From NCBI RefSeq assembly GCF_030409225.1, contig NZ_JAUFPK010000001.1:2161566-2225565 (forward strand): 64,000 nt of DNA, given 5' to 3'. Shown here in pieces: positions 20,245 to 43,829 of this stretch (position 1 is the first letter of the stretch; the number at the start of each line of letters is the position of its first letter). The stretch is from Aquisalimonas lutea (GTDB lineage Bacteria; Pseudomonadota; Gammaproteobacteria; Nitrococcales; Aquisalimonadaceae). The notes beneath the pieces were generated by a model. It had not been told where the DNA came from. It ran no database searches and saw only the letters and a list, made by a program, of their open reading frames with translations. A program made the position numbers and the translations under genes.

Positions 20245-23200
20245 TCACCACCCCGCCATGACGGCGTTGCCGTCCGCCGATGCTTCCTGTCCGACGGCCT
20301 GCTCCAGCGCGGCGACGACCCACTGGGCCTCGGCCACGGCCGTCGCCTCGTCGGGCAGCCGTGCCAGGACGTGATGCCAGCGTTCGGTGGCGTCCAGCGG
20401 CGAGCGGGGATCGACAAACCCCTGCTCCTCGAGCCAGGCGGCGATCTGCTCGATCTTCTTCGGCCCGACACCGCTGATGCGGTTGTCGCGTAGCGACTCG
20501 ACGAAGGCGCGGGGGTCGCCCGCCACCTCGGCGGCGCGTTCGGCCAGGGCGTCCAGGTGCTGCCAGTTGCTCATGGGGCCTTGCTCCAGGGCGGGGCGGT
20601 CCACGGGGGTGCCGCGGCCGATGTCCACGGCGTCGAACCAGGCGCGGGCCGCGGCGATGCGATGGACCAGGCGCCGGCGGGCCGCCTGGTCCAGATGGCG
20701 CTGCCCGGCCGGGCCCTGGAGGAGGCTGTCCGCCTGCCCCAGGGTGGTGACGTGGAAATCCGCCAGCAGCCGGTGGAGTAGCGCCAGGTCGTCGCCGAGT
20801 AGATGGAACAGATGCAGCGACCCCGCCGGCGCCCGTGGATCGACGGCGGGAACCCCCAGCGCCGCCGCGTAGCTCTCCCGGTCGTGGTCCTCCGGGGCGG
20901 GGATGCGTTCCCGGGCCGGCAGGGGCAGCGGCTCCGGCGGCGGGGTGTCGGGCATGCGCAGGCGGTCCAGGTCGATGACCCGCGGCGCCTCGCCGGTGGC
21001 CCGGCGCCAGCGCTCGGCGTCCTCCGGCTGGGCGGTGAGATAGACCAGCTGTCGTGCCTCGGCCCGGGTCAGCGCGTGCAGGGCGCCGGCGACGGCGTCG
21101 AAGCGCGCCGGATCGGTGGTGGTCAGGGCCTCGTCCAGCATCAGCGGCAGGGCGACGTGGTGCTGCTCGTGCTGCTCGACCCAGGCCATGCGCAGGGCGA
21201 TGAGCAGCTGCATGCGCGTGCCCACGGAGAGCTCCGCCAGGGGGCGGACGGCGGCGGTGGCGGTCTCGCGGGCGCAGGGCTCGCCGGCGTCGTTCAGCTC
21301 CAGCGTGAACGCGTCGTGGGTGAAACGCCGCAGGCGCTCGTCAGCCAGCCGGATGGCCTCGGGCCGGTGCCGGCTGCGGTGCTCCTGCTCCACCTCATCC
21401 AGGAGGCAACGCCCGGCCTCGGCGATCATGCGCTGCTCGTATCGATCCGCGACGGCTTCCGCGGCCTCGTCGCGCTCCGCCCGGGCGGCCTCCAGCCGCA
21501 ACTGGCGTTCGGCGTCCCGCAGGGCGTGATCGATCCCGGCGCGTTCGTGGATGAGCGCCTCGTGCCGGTCCGCCTCGGCGGCGGCGATGTTGAGCTGCTC
21601 CTGCAGCCAGGCGGTGTCCTCCGCCTCCGCGCGGGCGCGGATGTCCTCGGGGGCGTCGCTCAGGCGCTGCCGTGCCGTGTCCTCCTGGATGCGGGCCGTG
21701 CGCAGGGCGTCGCGGGCCTGTTCCCACGCCGGAAGATCCCGGATGCGCTCGAGGAGCGTTGCCCGGTCGCCGGGTTCCACCCCGGCGCGCTGATAGAGCT
21801 CCCGGAGCCGGGCATCGGCATCCCGGGCGGCCGCGCGGGCACGGGCTTCCTTCTCTTGTGCCTGCTGGTACTCGCGCTGCGCCTGCCACGCCGTCTGCGT
21901 CTGCTGATCCAGGGTCTCCAGGGCGCGTCCCAGGGCCGCGGGGTCGCGGCCGTCGGCAGCGGCATCCCAGCCGTTCAGGAACTCCACCAGCCGCTCGCGG
22001 AGCGGCCCTGCGCTGTCGTCCAGGTGGTGGATCCGGGCCGACGCGCCGGCGTGCTCGGCGCGGGCCTGGTCCAGCGCGACGACGCGCTGGAGAACCAGCT
22101 GGAAATGCTGGGCGATGTGCTCCGGGTCCAGCTGCAGGCCTGCCTCGGCGGCCCGGGCCCGCAGGCGCTCCCGGGCCGCGGCCAGCGCCTGATCCGCCTC
22201 GTTCAGCCGGTCCGCCGCGGCCGCATCGCGACCGGTCGCCGTCGCGGGGCGCAACGCCTGCCGGAGCAGCCAGGCGAGACCGATGACACCGGCGGCCGCC
22301 GCCGCGGCCGCCAGCACGGCCCACCAGCCGAGCGGGCCCCAGCCGGCGAAGCCGCCGCCGGCGGGGGCGCCGCCGCCGATCAGGGTGAAGGCCACGGCCA
22401 GGTGACGTCGTGCAGCCGGCCGCCCCGCGGGGGCATTCGCCTCGTGCGCCGCGGCGACGGCACGTGCCTGGCGATGGTCCGCGGCGGCCTGGGCGAGTTC
22501 CTGCACCGCTTCCTCCAGGCGTGCCACCTGCGCGGTATCCAGCTGCGCGCGGGAGCCGACATCGATGCCCAGGAGCTCGCCCGCCTCGCGCATGCGCTCC
22601 GCTGCCGCGGCCTGCTCCTCGCACGCCTTCTCCCGCCGTGCCTCCAGGTCCCGGAGCTCGTCCAGGCGGGTGCGCATGGCGGCGATCGCGGATGCCTCCG
22701 GTGCCGTTTCCTCCATCCCCGTGGCCTGCAGCCGCGCCAGGGCAGCGTCCGCCTCCTCGCGGGCGGCCTCGGCCTGGCCGGACTCGCGCTCGCGGGCCTT
22801 CTCCAGGTTGTCGACTTCCTCGGCGGTAATGCCTTCCGGCATGGAGTCGGGGAAGCGGTCCAGGTAGAGGCGCGCCTCCCGGGTCGCCCGGCAGGCGTCC
22901 GCGAGCTCCAGTCCGGCGCGATACTGCTGGGCGCGACGCAGGGCCGTGCCCGCGCGGGCGATGTCCTCGTCCAGCTCCGGGAGCCGGCGGCGCTGCTCCA
23001 GTAGCTGGCGGTTGTCCGCCTCGGCCCGGCGAAGCGCCTGTTCACTGTGCTGCAGCGTTTCACCCGCGGTGCGGTCACGCCGGGGGTGGACGGCGAATAC
23101 GCCGCCGTCGCCGCGCAGCACGGAGAGATCGTAGCCGCCGGCGAGCTCGCGCCGCAGCCGGCTGGCCACCGCCTGGTCGGTGCGGCTGAGCTGCAGGAGC

Positions 23201-23529
23201 TCGTCGACGGGCAGCAGATAGCCGCCCAGGGTGTCGGCATCGGGCAGCGGCGGCGGGGCGTGGGGCTCGCCGTCCCGGTGCCAGAGGATCTCGCGGCCGA
23301 TGCGCTCCACCTGCCAGCGGTGATGGTCATCGCTGAAGACCGCCTCCAGCATGACGTTGGGCGGGTCATCCCGGCGCGGCGTCAGCAGCAGGCGCAGCGC
23401 CCGCAGGAGGCTGCTCTTGCCGGAGGCGTTGGCACCGGTGACGACATTGACGCCGGCGCTGAAGCTGTCCACGGCCAGCGTGCCCTGGATGCCCGGCAGG
23501 CGACGGATATGGAGCGCGTCCAGCCTCAC
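20245..23529 (-). CDS. Rad50/SbcC-like ATPase, YhaN type, with helix-hairpin-helix tail
   Basis: SMC-like ATPase of 1094 residues that probably acts with the upstream nuclease in DNA end or structure processing. The Walker A GANASGKS is at 32-39. Long charged coiled coils (about 150-340 and 430-720) surround a hydrophobic, Ala-rich segment at about 380-426 that could span the membrane as a hairpin; no CxxC zinc hook is seen there. The C-terminal ATPase half has LSVGTRMQLLIALRM (signature) and LPLMLDEAL (Walker B, about 795). A further 250 residues follow, including a helix-hairpin-helix DNA-binding motif (ISGVGPKKIEQIAAWLEEQG, about 1013-1032). The GTG start overlaps the upstream stop (GTGA). 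The tail is unusual for this family. Confidence 0.8.
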   Translation of the reverse strand: MRLDALHIRRLPGIQGTLAVDSFSAGVNVVTGANASGKSSLLRALRLLLTPRRDDPPNVMLEAVFSDDHHRWQVERIGREILWHRDGEPHAPPPLPDADTLGGYLLPVDELLQLSRTDQAVASRLRRELAGGYDLSVLRGDGGVFAVHPRRDRTAGETLQHSEQALRRAEADNRQLLEQRRRLPELDEDIARAGTALRRAQQYRAGLELADACRATREARLYLDRFPDSMPEGITAEEVDNLEKARERESGQAEAAREEADAALARLQATGMEETAPEASAIAAMRTRLDELRDLEARREKACEEQAAAAERMREAGELLGIDVGSRAQLDTAQVARLEEAVQELAQAAADHRQARAVAAAHEANAPAGRPAARRHLAVAFTLIGGGAPAGGGFAGWGPLGWWAVLAAAAAAAGVIGLAWLLRQALRPATATGRDAAAADRLNEADQALAAARERLRARAAEAGLQLDPEHIAQHFQLVLQRVVALDQARAEHAGASARIHHLDDSAGPLRERLVEFLNGWDAAADGRDPAALGRALETLDQQTQTAWQAQREYQQAQEKEARARAAARDADARLRELYQRAGVEPGDRATLLERIRDLPAWEQARDALRTARIQEDTARQRLSDAPEDIRARAEAEDTAWLQEQLNIAAAEADRHEALIHERAGIDHALRDAERQLRLEAARAERDEAAEAVADRYEQRMIAEAGRCLLDEVEQEHRSRHRPEAIRLADERLRRFTHDAFTLELNDAGEPCARETATAAVRPLAELSVGTRMQLLIALRMAWVEQHEQHHVALPLMLDEALTTTDPARFDAVAGALHALTRAEARQLVYLTAQPEDAERWRRATGEAPRVIDLDRLRMPDTPPPEPLPLPARERIPAPEDHDRESYAAALGVPAVDPRAPAGSLHLFHLLGDDLALLHRLLADFHVTTLGQADSLLQGPAGQRHLDQAARRRLVHRIAAARAWFDAVDIGRGTPVDRPALEQGPMSNWQHLDALAERAAEVAGDPRAFVESLRDNRISGVGPKKIEQIAAWLEEQGFVDPRSPLDATERWHHVLARLPDEATAVAEAQWVVAALEQAVGQEASADGNAVMAGW

Positions 23530-24815
23530 GCGGTCACCTCGGCATCGTCCCGCTCCCGGAGCTCGTCCAGCGCCGCCAGCGCGGCCCGCCGCAGCCAGTC
23601 GGCGACCGCGGCGTCATCCGGCTCGCCGGCGTCCAGCCCCTGCCATGCCGTGTCCCGGTGGACCGGCATCAGATGCTCCCGGGCGCGTTGCAGCAGGGCC
23701 GTGCGCTCCGGGTCGCTCCCGGGCGCCTGGTCCAGCAGCTGGACCCGGCGGGCGAGCAGGCCGACCGGGTCCGGCCGCCGGGCGAGGGCGTCGATATCCA
23801 TCTCCGGCCGTGTGTCCAGCCACCATCGGCCCACGAAGCCCTGGATTCCGCCGGCCAGGGGGAGATCGTCCATGTCTTCGCCGGCGAGCAGGCTCCCGAT
23901 CTGGCGCCGCAGCCCCGTGCGTCCGTGCAGGCGGACCCGCAGCCCCAGCACGGCAGGCTGCCAGGGCTGGTCGGCGAGATCCGCCGCGGTCTCGTCGGCC
24001 GCCCGGAGAATCCGGCTGCGCACCTCGGCGGCGCTGTCCATGCCGGTGACGTCCACCTCCAGGGCTTCCCAGCGCAGCGGGGCCAGGGGCCACTGGGTCA
24101 CGGCCTCGATGCCCCCGCTGCCGATGGTGTACAGCCACGGGCCGCGGGCGCCGGTCTCGCTGGCCCGCAGCGCGCTCACTGATCCCAGGTAGCCGGAGGG
24201 ATGGCCGGCACTGATGGCGTCCGGCTTGTGGATGTGGCCCAGCAGCCAGGCATCCAGACCCGCGGCGGCGAGCTCGCGGCTCGTTACCGGGGCGTGGGCG
24301 CTGGCGGGCTGATCCCGGTCGCAGTGAAGCAGCCCCAGGGCGGGGGTGCCGTCGCGGGAGAAGCGCACCCCCTGCAGCGGGTTCTCGGCGGGAACGGGGC
24401 GGGGAAACGACCAGCCGTGCAGCCGTACCGGGACGCCGCCCGCATCACGCACAGTGACGGATTCCCAGTTGCCGCCGGCTCCCAGGAGCCGGAAGCCGGG
24501 CACCTCCCGGGCCAGTTGCGGCAGTACCTGGACGTCGTGGTTGCCGGCGACGCCGACGACGGTGATCCCGGCATCCACGAGGCTCGCCACGGCGCGGCGA
24601 AGACGGCCGTAGGCCTCGAAGAAATCGTCTTCCTGCTCGACCACGTCGCCGGCGAACGCCACGACATCCACGCCCTGGTGGACCGCCTCGCTCACCAGCC
24701 GGTCCAGGGCGCCCGCCGGTCCGAGCCGGCCGAGATCGTGGCGTGCCCGCACCGCCTCCGGCAGGCGGCCGGGGCGCCGGCCCAGATGGAGATCTCCCAC
24801 GGCGAGTAGCTGCAT
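23526..24815 (-). CDS. Mre11/SbcD-like metallophosphoesterase, YhaO type
   Basis: Probable DNA exonuclease/phosphoesterase subunit of 429 residues that pairs with the overlapping ATPase gene. Two-metal phosphoesterase motifs are in order: DLHLG (residues 8-12), GDVVEQ, GNHD, a lone His in LLHCD, and GHIHKP. The C-terminal third is a capping/partner-binding region with no clear motif. The ATG at 24815 starts directly at the conserved MQLLAVGDLHLG. The one- or four-base overlap with the ATPase gene implies translational coupling and a joint complex. The family includes YhaO, SbcD and Mre11; the membrane-type ATPase partner points to YhaO. Confidence 0.85.
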   Translation of the reverse strand: MQLLAVGDLHLGRRPGRLPEAVRARHDLGRLGPAGALDRLVSEAVHQGVDVVAFAGDVVEQEDDFFEAYGRLRRAVASLVDAGITVVGVAGNHDVQVLPQLAREVPGFRLLGAGGNWESVTVRDAGGVPVRLHGWSFPRPVPAENPLQGVRFSRDGTPALGLLHCDRDQPASAHAPVTSRELAAAGLDAWLLGHIHKPDAISAGHPSGYLGSVSALRASETGARGPWLYTIGSGGIEAVTQWPLAPLRWEALEVDVTGMDSAAEVRSRILRAADETAADLADQPWQPAVLGLRVRLHGRTGLRRQIGSLLAGEDMDDLPLAGGIQGFVGRWWLDTRPEMDIDALARRPDPVGLLARRVQLLDQAPGSDPERTALLQRAREHLMPVHRDTAWQGLDAGEPDDAAVADWLRRAALAALDELRERDDAEVTA

Positions 24816-25043
24816 GTCTCTATTGGATCACGGTTGCCGGGGGGTTGAGTACTGCGGAATGCGCGCAGGCGCACAAACCGGAACTGCTTCACATTTTACG
24901 TGCAATGGTGTACGTATGGTCTTGATTTGGGATACTGAATAACAACGGCGTCACGATAACGATACCGGAATTCAGGAAGACGCCACCCGGGCACACGGGT
25001 GCGGACGTGTGGTCGCGGGTCACGCAGACGGGGACGCAGAGCT

Positions 25044-28000
25044 ATGCCGATCAAGGGCCTGTCGACCGGACTGGTGGCCGACACGGGGCCGCCCGCCGGC
25101 GCCGAGACGGCCTTCACGGAAGGCGCCGATACGCTGGCGCACGTGCTGCTGGAAGGCGGCAGCCTGTCCGACGCCCTGTCGCGGATCTGTGCAGGCATTG
25201 ATTCGGAGCTCGGCGATGACGGCGTCCGCTCGACTGTCTGCCTGATCCGTGAGGGCCGTCTTTCGTACGTCGCGGGGCCCGGTATGCCCGGCGCCTTCTG
25301 GCGGGCCGTGAACGGCCTGCAGGTGGCCAGGCAGAGCGGCGCTTGCGGGCGCGCCGCGACGCTGGCCGAGCCCGTGTTCGTGGCCGATGTCCTCGACTCC
25401 CCTGCGTATGCGCGCTACCGCGAGCTGATCCGGCCCCTGGGTGTGGGCTCGGTCTGGGCCGTGCCGGTGCTCGACGGCTCGGGCCAGGTGCTGGCGACGG
25501 TATCGATGCACTTCCCGCAGCGCATGGATGCCCCTCCGGAAGGGGCGCAGGAGCCCATGCAACGGCTCGTGGGCCTGGTGCGCACGGCGCTGGTCATCGA
25601 GGAGCTCGGACAGCAGGGTGATCGGGACATCGCGGGGCTGCTGCGCTACATCCAGGGCAGCTCCATCGGCTGCATCGAGTGGGATCCCGATTTCCGGATC
25701 CGCTTCGGCAATCCCGCCGCGGCCGAGATGTTCAGCTACCTGCCGGATCACCTGATCGGCATGACCGGTGAGGACTTCCTGCTCCACGACAAGGATCGCA
25801 AGGGCCTGACCGCGATCAAGCAGGACATGCGCCGCGGCGGCATGCGGCACATGCACACCTATGCCCGCTGCCGGCGCAGCGACGGCGTCCCCATCTGGGT
25901 GGAGTGGTTCAACCTGGCGGTAACGGGCCGTGACGGGCGCATCACCGGCTTCCTGTCGCTGCTCAAGGATGTCACCGAGAGCACCCTGATCCGCCGGTAC
26001 ATGGACCGCGTCGCCTCGCTTCCGGAGGCCGGCGGCGGCTGGAGCTACCTCGACCATCTCGTGGAGCAGATCCGCAGCGTCATGGGGGCCGACGCGGCGG
26101 TGGTCGCGTCCGTGGACGCGAGCCGGAACGTCGCCCGGGTGCTTTCCGCGAGCGCGCGCGGCGCGCCCCTGGATATCGACTCCTACGCCCTTGCGGGCAC
26201 GCCCTGTGCGGAGCTGAACCATTGCGACGCCTGTGTCATCAACCACGAGGTGCAGGCCCGGTATCCCGACGATGAGCTTCTCACCCGGCTGGATGCACGG
26301 AGCTACGCCGGTGTCCGCCTGCGCGACGGCGACGGGCGGTCCGTCGGGCTGCTGGCGGTCGTCGGCAGGCATGCCCTGGGGCCGGTGGAACCGGTCCAGC
26401 GGACGCTGGAGCACGCGGCCGTCCGCATCCGTCTGGAGCTGCAGCGGCTCTGGGCGGAGCGCGATACGCGGCTGGCGGCTCTGGCCTTCGAGACCCACGA
26501 GGCGATCATGATCCTGGACCGGGACTACCGCTTCGTGCACGTCAACGACGCGTTCAGCCGCATGACCGGCTATCCGGCGGGCGCCGTCGTCGGCCACGGC
26601 CTGCGCCTGCTGCTGGGCGGCAGGCGTGGCGGCCCGGTGCGCCGGGATATCCAGGAGACGGTGCGTCGCAATGGTCGCTGGCACGGTGAGGTCTGGGCAC
26701 GCAGCCGGGACGGGGGGCAACGCCTCTACCGGCTGAGTCTGACCGCCCTGGAGGGGGCGGATGACCGGGACGCCCACTTCATCGGCAGCTTCCTGGACGT
26801 GACGTGGCACCGGGAGGCGGAAGAGCGCATCCATCGCCTGACCTTCGAGGACGGCGTGACGGGGCTGCCGAACCGGGCGTCGCTGCTGGGGCGCCTGGCG
26901 CGCAACAACGAGGTCCCGGCCAGGGGGCGCGGCGACGTCCTGATGGTCATGGACCTGGACGGCTTTCGTCGCGTCAACGAGGGCATGGGCTACGAGACGG
27001 CGGACTCGCTGCTGGAGATCCAGGCGGCGCGTCTCCGGGCCCTGGTGCCGGGGGCCGCCGCCGTGGCGCGGGTGGGGGCCGACGAGTTCGCCGTGCTGCT
27101 CAGCGGCGCCACGTTGCCGAAGGAGAGAAAGGCCTTCTGGGGCCGGGTTGCCGACGAAGCGGAGCGCCTGCGACGGGCCTTCCTGCAGCCGGTGGAAGTC
27201 AGCGGCACCATGGTGCAGTCGGGGGTCAGCATCGGGGTCGCCGTCATGGAAGCCGGGATGGACGATCCGTCGGCACTGCTGGGGCGCGCCGAGATCGCCG
27301 CGGGGCAGGCACGCCATCAGGGCGGCAACGGCGTGGCCTGGTTTGCACCGGAAATGGAGGCCGAGGCCAGCGAGCGCCGCGAGCTGGAGCGCGCGTTGCG
27401 GCAGGCGGTGGACGACGCGAGCATCGGCTTCTGCCTGCAGCCGCTGGTGAACGTCGAGGGCGGCATCACGGCCCTGGAGGTACTGGCCCGGTGGGAGTTC
27501 GACGGGGAGCCGGTGTCGCCGGCGAAGTTCATTCCCATCGCCGAGGCGTCCGGCCTCATCCGCCCCCTGGGGGCCCAGATTCTCCGGGCCGCTTGCCGGT
27601 GGCTCGCGGACTGGCATCGCGGCGCCCCGGAGCGGCCGCTGCCGGCGCTGGCCGTCAACGTCAGCGTCCGCCAGTTCCACGATCCCGATTTCGAGACCAT
27701 GGTGGCCGGGATCCTGGAGGAAAGCGGCCTGCCGCCCCGCGCCCTGCTGCTGGAGGTCACGGAGAGCCTGCTGGCGGACGAGGGCGACGGCGTGGTCGGG
27801 CGCATGAACCGGCTCCGGGACCTGGGCGTGCGCTTCGCCATCGACGATTTCGGCACCGGCTACTCCTGCCTTGCCTACCTGCGGCGGTTGCCCATCGACG
27901 AGCTCAAGATCGACGGCTCCTTCGTCGACGCCATGCTTCTCAGTCCGGAGGACGAGGAGATCGTGCGCACCATCATCGCCATGGCGCAGGCGCTGCGACT

Positions 28001-39753: not shown

Positions 39754-40143
39754 TTACGGCAGCGTTACCGGTTGCGGCGGCGTCCAGCCCGGGGCCCGGT
39801 GCTCGGCGATGACCGAGGTGTAGATGCCGCCGCGCACGTTGAAGTCGCCGGTCACGCGCATGAAGCGCGGTGCGGTGGCCGCCACCAGGTCGCTGAGCAT
39901 GTCGTGGGTGACCTGCTCGTGGAACGCCCCCTGGTCCCGGAACGACCACATGTACAGCTTCAGCGACTTCAGCTCGATGCAGTCCCGGTCGGGCACGTAC
40001 TCGATATGGATGGTGGCGAAATCCGGCTGTCCGGTCTTGGGGCACAGGCACGTGAATTCCGGGATCCGCATGCGGATGGTGTAGTCGCGCTCCGGCTGCG
40101 GATTGGGAAATGTCTCGATCTGGCGGCTGGGTTCCTGGGTCAT
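39754..40143 (-). CDS. queF: NADPH-dependent 7-cyano-7-deazaguanine reductase QueF
   Basis: Reduces preQ0 to preQ1 in queuosine synthesis (129 residues, the short YkvM-like type). The catalytic Cys34 lies in [11 protein letters not shown] and the partner Asp is Asp41; the QueF signature [14 protein letters not shown] and the FHE segment (Phe-His-Glu) follow. ATG 40143 gives the normal N-terminus. The gene is divergent from smc. With gluQ nearby it indicates tRNA queuosine modification in this organism. Confidence 0.96.
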
Positions 40144-40304
40144 GGCTTTCCAACGGTTTGAGTCAACGCGATAATGGCGCCTTCGCCGAGGCGCCGGGCA
40201 GGTTCGGCGGGTGCCCGGCGACGGATTATACCCGCGCCGGCGGCGTCGCCGCGACCATGCCGGGATATGACCCACACGCCCCCGCGGGGAAGGGACGGAG
40301 CTGC

Positions 40305-43300
40305 ATGCGTCTGAAGAAGATCAAGCTGGCGGGGTTCAAGTCCTTCGTCGATCCCACCACGGTGCACCTGCCGAGCAACCTCGTCGGGGTCGTTGGCCCC
40401 AACGGCTGCGGCAAGTCCAACGTCATCGACGCCGTGCGCTGGGTCATGGGTGAGAGCTCGGCGAAGCACCTGCGCGGCGAGTCCATGTCCGACGTCATCT
40501 TCAACGGCTCCAGCAGCCGCAAGCCGGTGAGCCAGGCGTCCATCGAGCTGGTGTTCGACAATGCCGACGGCACCCTGGGCGGGCAGTACGCCAGCTATTC
40601 GGAGATCTCCGTCAAGCGCCAGGTGAACCGGGAAGGGCAGTCCCAGTACCTGCTCAACGGCACCCGCTGCCGCAAGCGCGACATCACCGACGTGTTTCTC
40701 GGCACGGGCCTGGGCCCGCGCAGCTACTCCATCATCGAGCAGGGCATGATCTCGCGGATCATCGAGGCCAAGCCCGACGAGCTGCGCGTGTACCTGGAGG
40801 AGGCGGCGGGCATCTCGCTGTACAAGGAGCGGCGGCGGGAGACGGAGCGGCGCATCCGCGACACCCGGGAGAACCTGGAACGCCTGGACGACGTCCGCGA
40901 GGAAGTCGCCGGCCAGCTGGACAAGCTCAGCCGGCAGGCGCGCACCGCCGAGCGCTACAAGGAATACAAGAAGGAGGAGCGCCAGCTGCGCGCGGAGCTG
41001 CTGGCCATCCGCCTGCGCGGTCTGGTCGCGGAGATGCGCGCCGGCGAGCAGGCCCTGGAGGAAAAGCGCAACGCCCTGGAGGCCGAGGTCGGGCGCCAGC
41101 GCGCCGCCGAGCGCGAGCTGGTGGAGCAGCGGGAGCAGCAGAGCGAGCTGGGCGAGGAGGTCAACACCGCCCAGGGTCGCTACTACTCCCTGGGCAGCGA
41201 GATCGCGCGGGTGGAGCAGCAGATCCAGCACGAGCGCGAGCGCCAGAAGAAGCAGGCGGACGATCTGGCCGCCAACAGCCAGGCGCTGGAGGATCTCCAG
41301 CAGACCATCCGCGACGACGAGGACAAGCTGGCCGCCGCCCGCGACCGGCTGGCGGAGCTCACGCCGGAGATCGAGGAGCTGCAGGGGCTGGAGGAGACCG
41401 CCTCGGATCAGGTCATCGAGGCGCAGCAGGCCATGGACGACTGGCAGCGGCGCTGGGAGGCCTTCAACGAGGCGGCCGCCCAGGCCGTGCAGCAGGCCCA
41501 GGTGGAGCGCACGCGCATCGAGGGGCTGGAGCAGCGCCAGCAGGAGCTGGCCCGGCGGCGCGAGCGCCTGGTCGCCGAGCGGGATCAGCTGGACCCGGAC
41601 GCCGTGGCCGCCGAGCTGGACGAGCTCACCGACGAGGCCGCCGAGCTGGCCGAGCGCCAGGAGACGCTGGCCGAGTCCCTGGAGGAGGCCCAGCGGGCGG
41701 TCACCGAGCTCGCCGAGCAGGAGACGGAGCTGGATGACAGCATCCACGACCTGCGCGGCGAGATCCAGCAGGGCGAGGCCCGCCTGACGTCGCTGGAGAC
41801 GCTGCAGCAGGACGCCCTGGGCGCCGGTGACGACGGCCCGGTGGTGGCGTGGCTGGCGCGCCACGGCCTGGACGGCCACCCGCGGCTGGCGCAGATCCTG
41901 TCCGTTGCCGCGGGTTGGGAGCGGGCCGTGGAGGCGGTGCTGGCCGAACGCCTGCAGGCGGTGTGTGTCGGCGAGGCCGAGATGCCCGCTGCGGATGCCC
42001 TCGGGGCGCCGGAACAGGGCCGCGCCACGCTGCTGCGGCGCGACGGTCATGCCCCGTCGGCGGACGGCGGCCGGGACGGGCTCGAGCCCCTGGCGGCGCA
42101 CGTCACCGCGCCCGCACCGCTGGCGGATCTCCTGCACGGCGTCTTCTGTGCCGGTGATGCGGCCGCGGCGGAGCGCCTGCGCGGGCAGCTGGGCCCCGGG
42201 GAGCGCCTGGTGACGCCGGAGGGCATGGTGCACGGCCGGGGCTGGAGCCAGGTTGCCGGGGGCGACGGCGACAGCGACGGCCTGCTGGAGCGCGAGCGCG
42301 CCATGGAGGAGCTGCGGGCGTCCCTGGAGGCGTCCCGGGAGTGGCTGGAGACATTGCTGCAGCAGCGCCGCGAGCTGGAAGAGCGCCGCATGGACCACGA
42401 GGAGACCCGGGACCGCCTGCGCGAGGAACGCGACACGGTCGCCCAGCGGCTCACCGAGGTGCGCGCGCGGGAGGAGGGCCGCCGCCAGCGCCTGGACGAG
42501 CTGCGCGAGCGCGGCGAGCGCCTGGCGCACGACATCGACGCCCTGGACCGGGAAGCCGTCGAGGTGGACGAGTCGGTGCGCAGCGCCCGGGCCCGCCTGC
42601 AGGAGGCCATGGACCGCAGCGAGGCGGACGAGGAGCAGCGGCAGACGCTGCAGGCCGAGCGGGAGCAGCACGAGCAGGCGCTCAACGACGCCCGCGAGGT
42701 GATGCGCGAGCGCCGGGAGCGCCGGCACGAGCTGTCCCTCAAGCAGGAGAGCGCGAGCTCCGCGCAGCAGTCCCTGGAAGAGCAGCTGCGCCGCCTCCGC
42801 GATCAGCAGGAGCGGCTGCAGGGGCAGCAGGAGGAGCTGCGGGCCGCCGGCGACGAGCAGGGCGACCCGGTCCCGGGGCTGGAGGCGGAGCGGGAGCGGC
42901 TGCTGCAGCAGCGGGTGGAAGCGGAGCAGGCGCTGACCGCGGCCCGTGAGCGCGTATCCGCCGTGGAGAGCCGCCTCCGGGAGCTCGAGGAGCAGCGCCA
43001 GCAGGCCGAGCAGCGGGTCGAGGCCCTGCGCGGGGAGGTGGAGCAGATGCAGCTGCGGGACCAGGAGCTGCGGGTGCACCGGCAGACGCAGTCCGAGCAG
43101 CTGGTGGAGCTCGGCTTCGACCTGGACACGCTTCAGGCCAATCTGCCCGAGTCGGCCGCCGAGGCGGACTGGCAGGCGCGGCTGGAGCAGGTGGAGCAGC
43201 GCATCAACCGCCTGGGGCCCATCAACCTGGCGGCCATCGACGAGCACGAGCAGCTCTCCGAGCGCAAGGGCTACCTGGACCAGCAGCACGCGGACCTCAC

Positions 43301-43829
43301 CGAGGCCATGGAGACCCTGGAGTCGGCCATCCGCAAGATCGACCGCGAGACGCGCCAGCGTTTCCGCGAGACCTTCGACAAGGTCAACGCCGGCATCCAG
43401 CGCATGTATCCGCGGCTGTTCGGCGGCGGCGAGGCCTACCTGGAGATGACCAGCGACGACCTCCTGGAGACCGGCGTGACCATCATGGCGCGGCCGCCCG
43501 GCAAGCGGGTGAGCACCATCCACCTGCTCTCCGGCGGCGAGAAGGCGCTGACCGCCGTGGCCCTGATCTTCGCCATCTTCGAGCTCAACCCGGCGCCGTT
43601 CTGCATGCTCGACGAGGTGGACGCGCCCCTGGACGAGGCCAACGTGGGGCGGTTCTGCGAGCTCGTCCAGGAGATGTCGGCGCGGGTGCAGTTCATCCTG
43701 ATCACCCACAACAAGGCGACCATGGAGATCGTCAGCCACCTCATGGGGGTGACCATGCACGAGGCCGGCGTCTCCCGGCTGGTCGCCGTGGACGTCGACG
43801 AGGCCGCGGAGATGGCGGTGGCCGTGTAG
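40305..43829 (+). CDS. smc: Chromosome partition protein SMC
   Basis: Condensin ATPase of 1174 residues that organises and separates sister chromosomes with ScpA and ScpB. The N-terminal head has Walker [10 protein letters not shown] (about 32-40). Two very long coiled coils rich in Glu, Gln and Arg flank the hinge (about 505-645, [16 protein letters not shown] to [10 protein letters not shown]). The C-terminal head has signature [14 protein letters not shown] and Walker [19 protein letters not shown] 40305 follows GGGACGGAG. zipA follows 161 nt downstream, the usual gammaproteobacterial order. Confidence 0.98.

What the first reader, a model, noticed from the sequence alone, without database searches (positions are those of the whole stretch)
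20245..24815. Membrane-type Mre11/Rad50-like pair with an added helix-hairpin-helix tail
The ATPase replaces the usual zinc hook with a hydrophobic hairpin and adds about 250 residues after the ATPase head, including ISGVGPKKIEQIAAW, a DNA-binding HhH. Together with the overlapping phosphoesterase this could be a DNA-end processor anchored at the membrane, perhaps acting on incoming DNA.
Basis: partly seen in the sequence, partly recalled or inferred. Interest (0 to 1): 0.57.

Follow-up and report, generated by a model that had tools for sequence, protein, structure and literature searches.

The report
Membrane-hairpin Mre11/Rad50 pair with extra tail
Two neighbouring genes encode a DNA-end-processing nuclease and motor of the Mre11/Rad50 kind that seems held in the cell membrane and carries an extra helical domain found only in this lineage of the machine, scattered through many bacteria and on plasmids of salt-loving archaea.

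Summary
The tail is not a general YhaN feature (0 of 16 canonical YhaN proteins with a visible C-terminus). It marks one clade of pairs, in bacteria of many phyla and on haloarchaeal plasmids. The apex island (mostly uncharged, R/K-flanked) recurs in the clade, so a membrane hairpin is likely, although the window's own first helix is weak. A tail-less pair with such a hairpin also exists, so the hairpin is not new.

The helix-hairpin-helix reading is mostly not borne out. The GxG hairpin is nearly confined to the window's family, Pfam finds no HhH, the domain is acidic, and the most conserved residues lie elsewhere. The tail models confidently (pLDDT 94.8) without a convincing PDB match.

In relatives the pair and other Mre11/Rad50 pairs tend to exclude each other, and this genome shows no other SbcD. 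I read it as the resident SbcCD-type DNA-end processor, membrane-tethered, with the tail a docking or regulatory domain. The clade also lacks the ATPase switch histidine. Function is inferred; action on incoming DNA is untested.

The parts
23526..24815 (-). Mre11/YhaO-like calcineurin-type phosphoesterase, 429 aa
   Evidence: Pfam Metallophos E 2.1e-10. D8, H10, D57, N92, H93, D94, H164, H194 and H196 invariant in an alignment of 48 rows; that these are the Mre11 metal ligands is recalled. Profile matches solved Mre11/SbcD structures.
20245..23529 (-). Rad50-like coiled-coil ATPase, 1094 aa, GTG start, 4-bp overlap with the phosphoesterase
   Evidence: Profile matches Rad50 structures, best E 2.1e-11. 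Full-length model's top PDB match is a Mre11-Rad50-Nbs1 complex, Foldseek E 7.2e-11.
23410..23436 (-). Walker A, residues 32-40
22264..22404 (-). Uncharged hydrophobic apex, residues 376-422 (likely two-helix membrane hairpin), in place of a zinc hook
21208..21231 (-). ABC signature, residues 767-774
   Evidence: L767, S768 and Q774 invariant in 53 of 53.
21103..21147 (-). Walker B and D-loop, residues 795-809
   Evidence: P795, D799, D806 and R809 invariant in 53 of 53.
21019..21051 (-). Altered H-loop, residues 827-837: no histidine at the switch position, mostly Ala
   Evidence: No His at column 833 in 53 of 53; canonical YhaN reads THH.
20248..20934 (-). C-terminal all-helical tail domain, residues 866-1094
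   Evidence: Alignment A2 of 68. Model pLDDT 94.8, pTM 0.87. No Foldseek PDB match at E<=0.001.
20434..20478 (-). HhH-like motif ISGVGPKKIEQIAAW, residues 1018-1032; the glycine hairpin is not conserved outside the window's family

Best explanation
It is a two-protein Mre11-Rad50-type machine that serves as this lineage's SbcCD equivalent. The phosphoesterase cuts DNA ends or hairpins and is gated by ATP-dependent closing of the Rad50-like heads. Instead of joining two complexes through a zinc hook, the coiled-coil apex sits in the inner membrane as a short hairpin, so that the heads work on DNA near the membrane. The extra C-terminal domain follows the head and most likely docks another protein or the phosphoesterase, or regulates head closure; it is not a simple DNA-binding HhH. 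Shown by sequence: the gene pair, an intact set of nuclease motifs, a Rad50-like head, a hydrophobic apex with positive flanks, a conserved tail, absence of the switch histidine, and a distribution that tends to exclude other Mre11/Rad50 pairs. Inferred: membrane insertion, nuclease activity, substrate, and the tail's role.
For: Phosphoesterase before ATPase in 64 of 64 loci with upstream DNA, three of them archaeal, and annotated so in 8 of 9 haloarchaeal plasmid loci, the same three included. The nuclease motif residues are invariant in 48 rows. The ATPase head is Rad50-like. Apex: in 92 rows (8 of them second copies of a gene reached by another route, judged by shared sequence or contig length) the best 36-48-residue window has mean hydropathy 0.74-2.3, median 1.79; 18 YhaN-locus controls reach at most 0.83. 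The first charged residue outside the island is K/R in 83 of 92 on the N side and 80 of 92 on the C side, against 44% K/R among charged residues of the arms. Own genome: the only match of the sbcD model at E<=0.001 is this phosphoesterase, at 24 bits, below the cut-off. Among 59 genomes (own included), another sbcD-like match of at least 40 bits is in 2 of 30 with the pair and 13 of 29 without it (Fisher p 0.0009); at 30 bits 4 of 30 against 13 of 29 (p 0.01). In genomes at least 95% complete: 1 of 19 against 8 of 18 (p 0.008). Within genus g10: 1 of 5 against 4 of 4 (p 0.048). I read ten of the fifteen such loci: nine hold a Walker-A ATPase beside the phosphoesterase, and in the tenth (L218) the neighbouring ATPase-like frame showed no Walker A.
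Against: The window's first hydrophobic segment is weak and not modelled as a helix. The lowest relatives overlap the YhaN controls (L064 0.74; L061 0.89; control maximum 0.83). The genomes compared are related, so the Fisher values overstate independence, and the bit thresholds were chosen after seeing the scores. 16 of the 29 genomes without the pair also lack another sbcD-like match at 40 bits, so neither system looks indispensable; one of the 29 (G037) holds an ATPase fragment. Two genomes hold both. No experiment exists. The missing switch histidine could mean ATP hydrolysis differs from Rad50.
Confidence: 0.55

Rival explanations
1. The tail is a DNA-binding helix-hairpin-helix domain that grips the duplex beside the nuclease.
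For: The motif reads like an HhH in the window. Of the 7 rows from the window's family, 7 keep the second glycine and 6 have G-x-G. The model has helix 1006-1014, a loop and helix 1023-1035 there. Weak VIA-align rows for that stretch include SARM1 (8gni, Z 3.4) and chain NA of a complex that holds NusA (8y5l, Z 2.6).
Against: G-x-G in 2 of 68 tails. No Pfam HhH in any of 68 tails at E<=0.1; one of 18 tails matched PF00633 at E 0.18. Net charge is -12 in the window, and zero or negative in 67 of 68. The best conserved residues (H906, F908, D913, L915, G931, G971, R972) lie outside the motif.
Confidence: 0.15
2. A defence or counter-mobile-element system that degrades incoming phage or plasmid DNA at the membrane.
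For: Patchy distribution over phyla and presence on haloarchaeal plasmids. A few neighbours such as DUF3883 or a CRISPR-associated ring nuclease. PDB matches of the model include Lamassu and Wadjet SMC proteins.
Against: The phosphoesterase is in 14 of 14 genomes of one genus (g9) and 5 of 5 of the window's own. No recurrent third partner: the commonest neighbour cluster is in 9 loci. Of the 48 PADLOC families matched by the ATPase, the 25 shown mostly cover only the P-loop stretch, and the phosphoesterase matches none. The tendency to exclude SbcCD-like pairs points to repair. A defence enrichment of the neighbourhoods was not tested.
Confidence: 0.15
3. A processor of transforming DNA at the uptake machinery, like B. 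subtilis SbcE (YhaN).
For: The title of Krishnamurthy 2010 names DSB repair and competence for SbcE (reference entries). A tail-less YhaN with an apex hairpin exists (L208).
Against: The two flanking genes are flgL and a c-di-GMP phosphodiesterase-like gene, not competence genes. The tailed clade is separate from YhaO. Competence genes in the genome were not searched.
Confidence: 0.12
4. The hydrophobic apex is a soluble hydrophobic dimerisation hinge, not a membrane anchor.
For: Gly/Ala-rich, one weak segment in the window. Other Rad50/SMC proteins dimerise at the apex (recalled).
Against: Length (mean 45 residues), 0.64 charged residues per island on average (none in 51 of 92), and the K/R bias on both flanks.
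Confidence: 0.15

Closest known systems
YhaO-YhaN pairs with PF13514 (Proteobacteria)
   Same: Phosphoesterase next to a long coiled-coil ATPase (18 loci read). Their phosphoesterases are the outgroup side of the tree.
   Different: No apex segment at 19-residue mean hydropathy 1.6 in 18 of 18; no tail in 16 of 16 with visible C-terminus, ending shortly after a THH H-loop. Separated from the tailed clade by a branch of SH-aLRT 100. The window ATPase is below the PF13514 cut-off (16.2 against 22 bits).
SbcE (YhaN) / YhaO of Bacillus
   Same: Probably the same general plan. L208, a human-gut contig labelled phage, holds a YhaO-YhaN pair with an apex hairpin. B. pumilus yhaO and yhaN are listed under lexA/SOS (PMC3896406, passages).
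   Different: L208 has no tail match. The B. subtilis protein itself was not obtained; that it has membrane helices is only recalled.
SbcCD / Mre11-Rad50
   Same: Mre11-type motifs, Rad50-type head.
   Different: No CxxC hook, below SbcD and Rad50 model cut-offs, extra tail, no H-loop histidine.

Membership tests
Mre11-Rad50 superfamily pair | Phosphoesterase with DxH, GD, GNHD, H, GHxH metal motifs | tested here: met
   Invariant in 48 rows; Pfam PF00149 41.8 bits, cut-off 21.5.
Mre11-Rad50 superfamily pair | ABC head split by a long coiled coil | tested here: met
   Long helices between 149 and 720 separate the head halves in the model; Rad50 structure matches.
Mre11-Rad50 superfamily pair | ATP-dependent nuclease activity | not testable with these tools
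   Needs biochemistry.
SbcCD | SbcD model TIGR00619 over cut-off | tested here: not met
   23.9 against 77.65 bits.
SbcCD | CxxC zinc hook at the apex | tested here: not met
   No CxxC in the protein; uncharged hydrophobic island instead.
YhaN (PF13514, AAA_27) | Pfam gathering score | tested here: not met
   16.2 against 22 bits; no match in the own genome at E<=0.001.
Helix-hairpin-helix DNA-binding domain (tail) | Conserved glycine hairpin (GxG) and HhH sequence model | tested here: not met
   GxG in 2 of 68; no Pfam HhH in 68 tails at E<=0.1.
Helix-hairpin-helix DNA-binding domain (tail) | HhH fold | tested here: inconclusive
   VIA-align rows only up to Z 4.2, over 54 residues.
Membrane hairpin protein | Two hydrophobic segments with positive cytoplasmic flanks | tested here: inconclusive
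   Two or more segments in 45 of 51 rows and one in 6, though in at least one of the 45 (L106) the second lies far from the apex; flank bias; the window's first segment is weak.

The most novel reading that the evidence does not exclude
A clade-wide third design of the Mre11-Rad50 machine, shared by bacteria and haloarchaeal plasmids. The hook is replaced by a membrane hairpin, the switch histidine is lost, and the head carries an undescribed all-helical domain, so DNA ends are processed at the membrane under control of a partner that binds this domain.
Probability: 0.35. Interest if true: 0.7.

Novelty: new variant of a known kind. Interest (0 to 1): 0.5.

Why it matters
Mre11-Rad50 is among the most conserved DNA-repair machines, and its zinc hook is considered central to tethering (recalled). 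A lineage that swaps the hook for a membrane hairpin, adds a conserved head domain and appears to stand in for SbcCD would make 'what is the hook for' testable. It also offers a tagged-protein test of DNA-end processing at the membrane. The tail is a well-predicted conserved domain that no Pfam model recognised in our scans, so it is a good target for structure determination.

Tried and rejected
Viral origin: 16 pattern matches in viral contigs, none confirmed as a relative of the tail; one weak phosphoesterase hit in phage records; the tail model has no BFVD match at E<=0.001. A third operon partner: the commonest neighbour cluster is in 9 loci, and larger shared neighbourhoods are within close relatives. 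SOS control: no match to one LexA-like consensus with up to 3 mismatches in the window, no sigma-70 promoter match at 24750-25050. Known fold for the tail: Foldseek PDB best E 1.5, VIA-align best Z 4.2 over 54 residues, PDB profile search best E 0.28. These absences do not prove a new fold. Literature: in ten searches no listed title or abstract start describes the tailed pair. The listings were capped (30 of 109, 10 of 12) and subscription journals are mostly not held.

Rows left out: A1 took 18 of the 29 tails at hand. A2 has the window and 67 of 69 scan tails (without L136 and L143). A3 has the window and 52 of 61 full-length rows, A4 the window and 47 of 57, mostly close duplicates dropped; so 'invariant' refers to these subsets. 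L195-L196 were fetched as weak PF13514 matches and not counted as YhaN. L182 and L193 run off their contigs and were left out of the C-terminus counts. In the control the longest frame of L188 is a shadow ORF. L065 and L066 were left out of the hairpin count as truncated. One search covers only rows whose Walker A fitted a strict pattern (51). G037 counts as lacking the pair although an ATPase fragment is present. Eight near-duplicate rows and rows under 260 residues were left out of the tree, which was a quick search with SH-aLRT support only. Of the ten alternative loci read, two (L212, L218) come from genomes that also have the pair.

Full report
What is there. The phosphoesterase (23526-24815, 429 aa) and the ATPase (20245-23529, 1094 aa) lie on the minus strand and overlap by 4 bp. 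Upstream is a divergent c-di-GMP phosphodiesterase-like gene, downstream a convergent flgL. The phosphoesterase matches Metallophos and, as a profile, solved Mre11/SbcD proteins. The Mre11-type motif residues are invariant in 48 aligned rows. The ATPase profile matches Rad50, and the full-length model (pLDDT 83.4, pTM 0.46) finds a Mre11-Rad50-Nbs1 complex first.

The apex. In the window residues 376-422 hold no charged residue, and arginines stand on both sides; the protein has no CxxC. In 92 rows (8 genes counted twice) the same place is hydrophobic, uncharged in 51 of 92, and the first charged residue outside is K/R in 83 and 80 of 92, against 44% in the arms. Canonical YhaN has no such segment in 18 of 18; its best 40-residue means reach 0.83, which overlaps the lowest relative, 0.74. 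A gut contig carries a tail-less YhaO-YhaN pair with an apex hairpin, so the hairpin alone is not special to this clade. In the window itself the first helix is weak.

The tail. Residues 866-1094 align over 68 sequences and model at pLDDT 94.8. In 69 of 69 genome-contig loci the tail lies in one frame with the C-terminal part of the ATPase; that scan used a single peptide pattern, so tails apart from the ATPase could have been missed. It is absent from canonical YhaN (0 of 16 with a visible C-terminus). The most conserved positions are H906, F908, D913, L915, G931, G971 and R972. The proposed HhH keeps its glycines in the window's family (second glycine 7 of 7); elsewhere the place reads roughly [VL]x[GR]FRxxKxxELExW. 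Net charge runs from -17 to +2, zero or negative in 67 of 68. No convincing fold match was found.

A further difference. Where canonical YhaN reads THH in 16 of 16, the tailed clade has no histidine at the switch position in 53 of 53 (Ala 41, Ser 7, Cys 3, Pro 1, Asn 1), and 7 of 7 archaeal rows shown read TA. ATP hydrolysis or its coupling may therefore differ from Rad50; this is inference.

Distribution. Relatives: phosphoesterase 35 of 59 genomes, 30 of them at E below 1e-40; ATPase 32 of 59. Class sample: 6 of 274, the window's own among them. Phylum sample: 1 of 299, the own genome only. The genome scan gave 69 loci in Gammaproteobacteria, Planctomycetota, Acidobacteriota, Myxococcota and others, by record titles. 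Nine haloarchaeal plasmids matched; in eight the phosphoesterase is annotated directly before the ATPase, while in the ninth (NZ_CP084880.1) only an ATPase C-terminal piece was seen. In the phosphoesterase tree (84 rows, SH-aLRT) the tailed rows form one side of a branch of support 100, with bacteria (97) and archaea (98) separate. Some MAG labels may be binning errors.

Role. In the own genome the sbcD model finds nothing but this phosphoesterase. Over 59 genomes the pair and other SbcD-like proteins of at least 40 bits tend to exclude each other (2 of 30 against 13 of 29), also within one genus (1 of 5 against 4 of 4). Nine of the ten alternative loci read have a Walker-A ATPase next to the phosphoesterase; no frame in the ten matches the tail model, and the best 40-residue mean hydropathy of the ATPase frames is at most 0.80. 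The simplest reading is that the pair does the SbcCD job. Related genomes are not independent, the threshold was set after seeing the scores, and 16 of 29 genomes lack both, so this is support and not proof.

Known work. B. subtilis SbcE (YhaN) is cited as a DSB-repair and competence SMC-like protein (reference entries and passages, PMC3896406, PMC4205851 and PMC5059476). The original paper was not held. No paper on the tailed clade appeared in the listings of the ten searches named under Tried and rejected.

Noticed in passing
window 40110-43829 (+): A full-length chromosome segregation protein SMC (TIGR02168, 1129.6 bits), about 15 kb from the pair.
   Followed up: yes
L209-L217: Other Mre11-like pairs in relatives: phosphoesterase frame of 372-509 aa beside a Walker-A ATPase frame of 852-1293 aa without hydrophobic apex or tail. 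H-loops read TCR in L209-L211 and TCH in L214-L215; L213 has a CxxC in its middle third.
   Followed up: partly
L208 (MT838737.1): A record labelled Bacteriophage sp. from human faeces holds a cellular-looking YhaO-YhaN pair with an apex hairpin.
   Followed up: partly
L086, L083, L102: MAG contigs labelled Thermaerobacter, PVC group and Lentisphaerae group with Gammaproteobacteria in the phosphoesterase tree: horizontal transfer or binning error.
   Followed up: no
NZ_CP119813.1 (L145 and hit H41): This haloarchaeal plasmid holds two places that match the family.
   Followed up: no
L112:1416-2682 and L143: The phosphoesterase of L112 is split over two frames; the tail match of L143 stops half-way in a longer frame. 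Sequencing error or decay.
   Followed up: no
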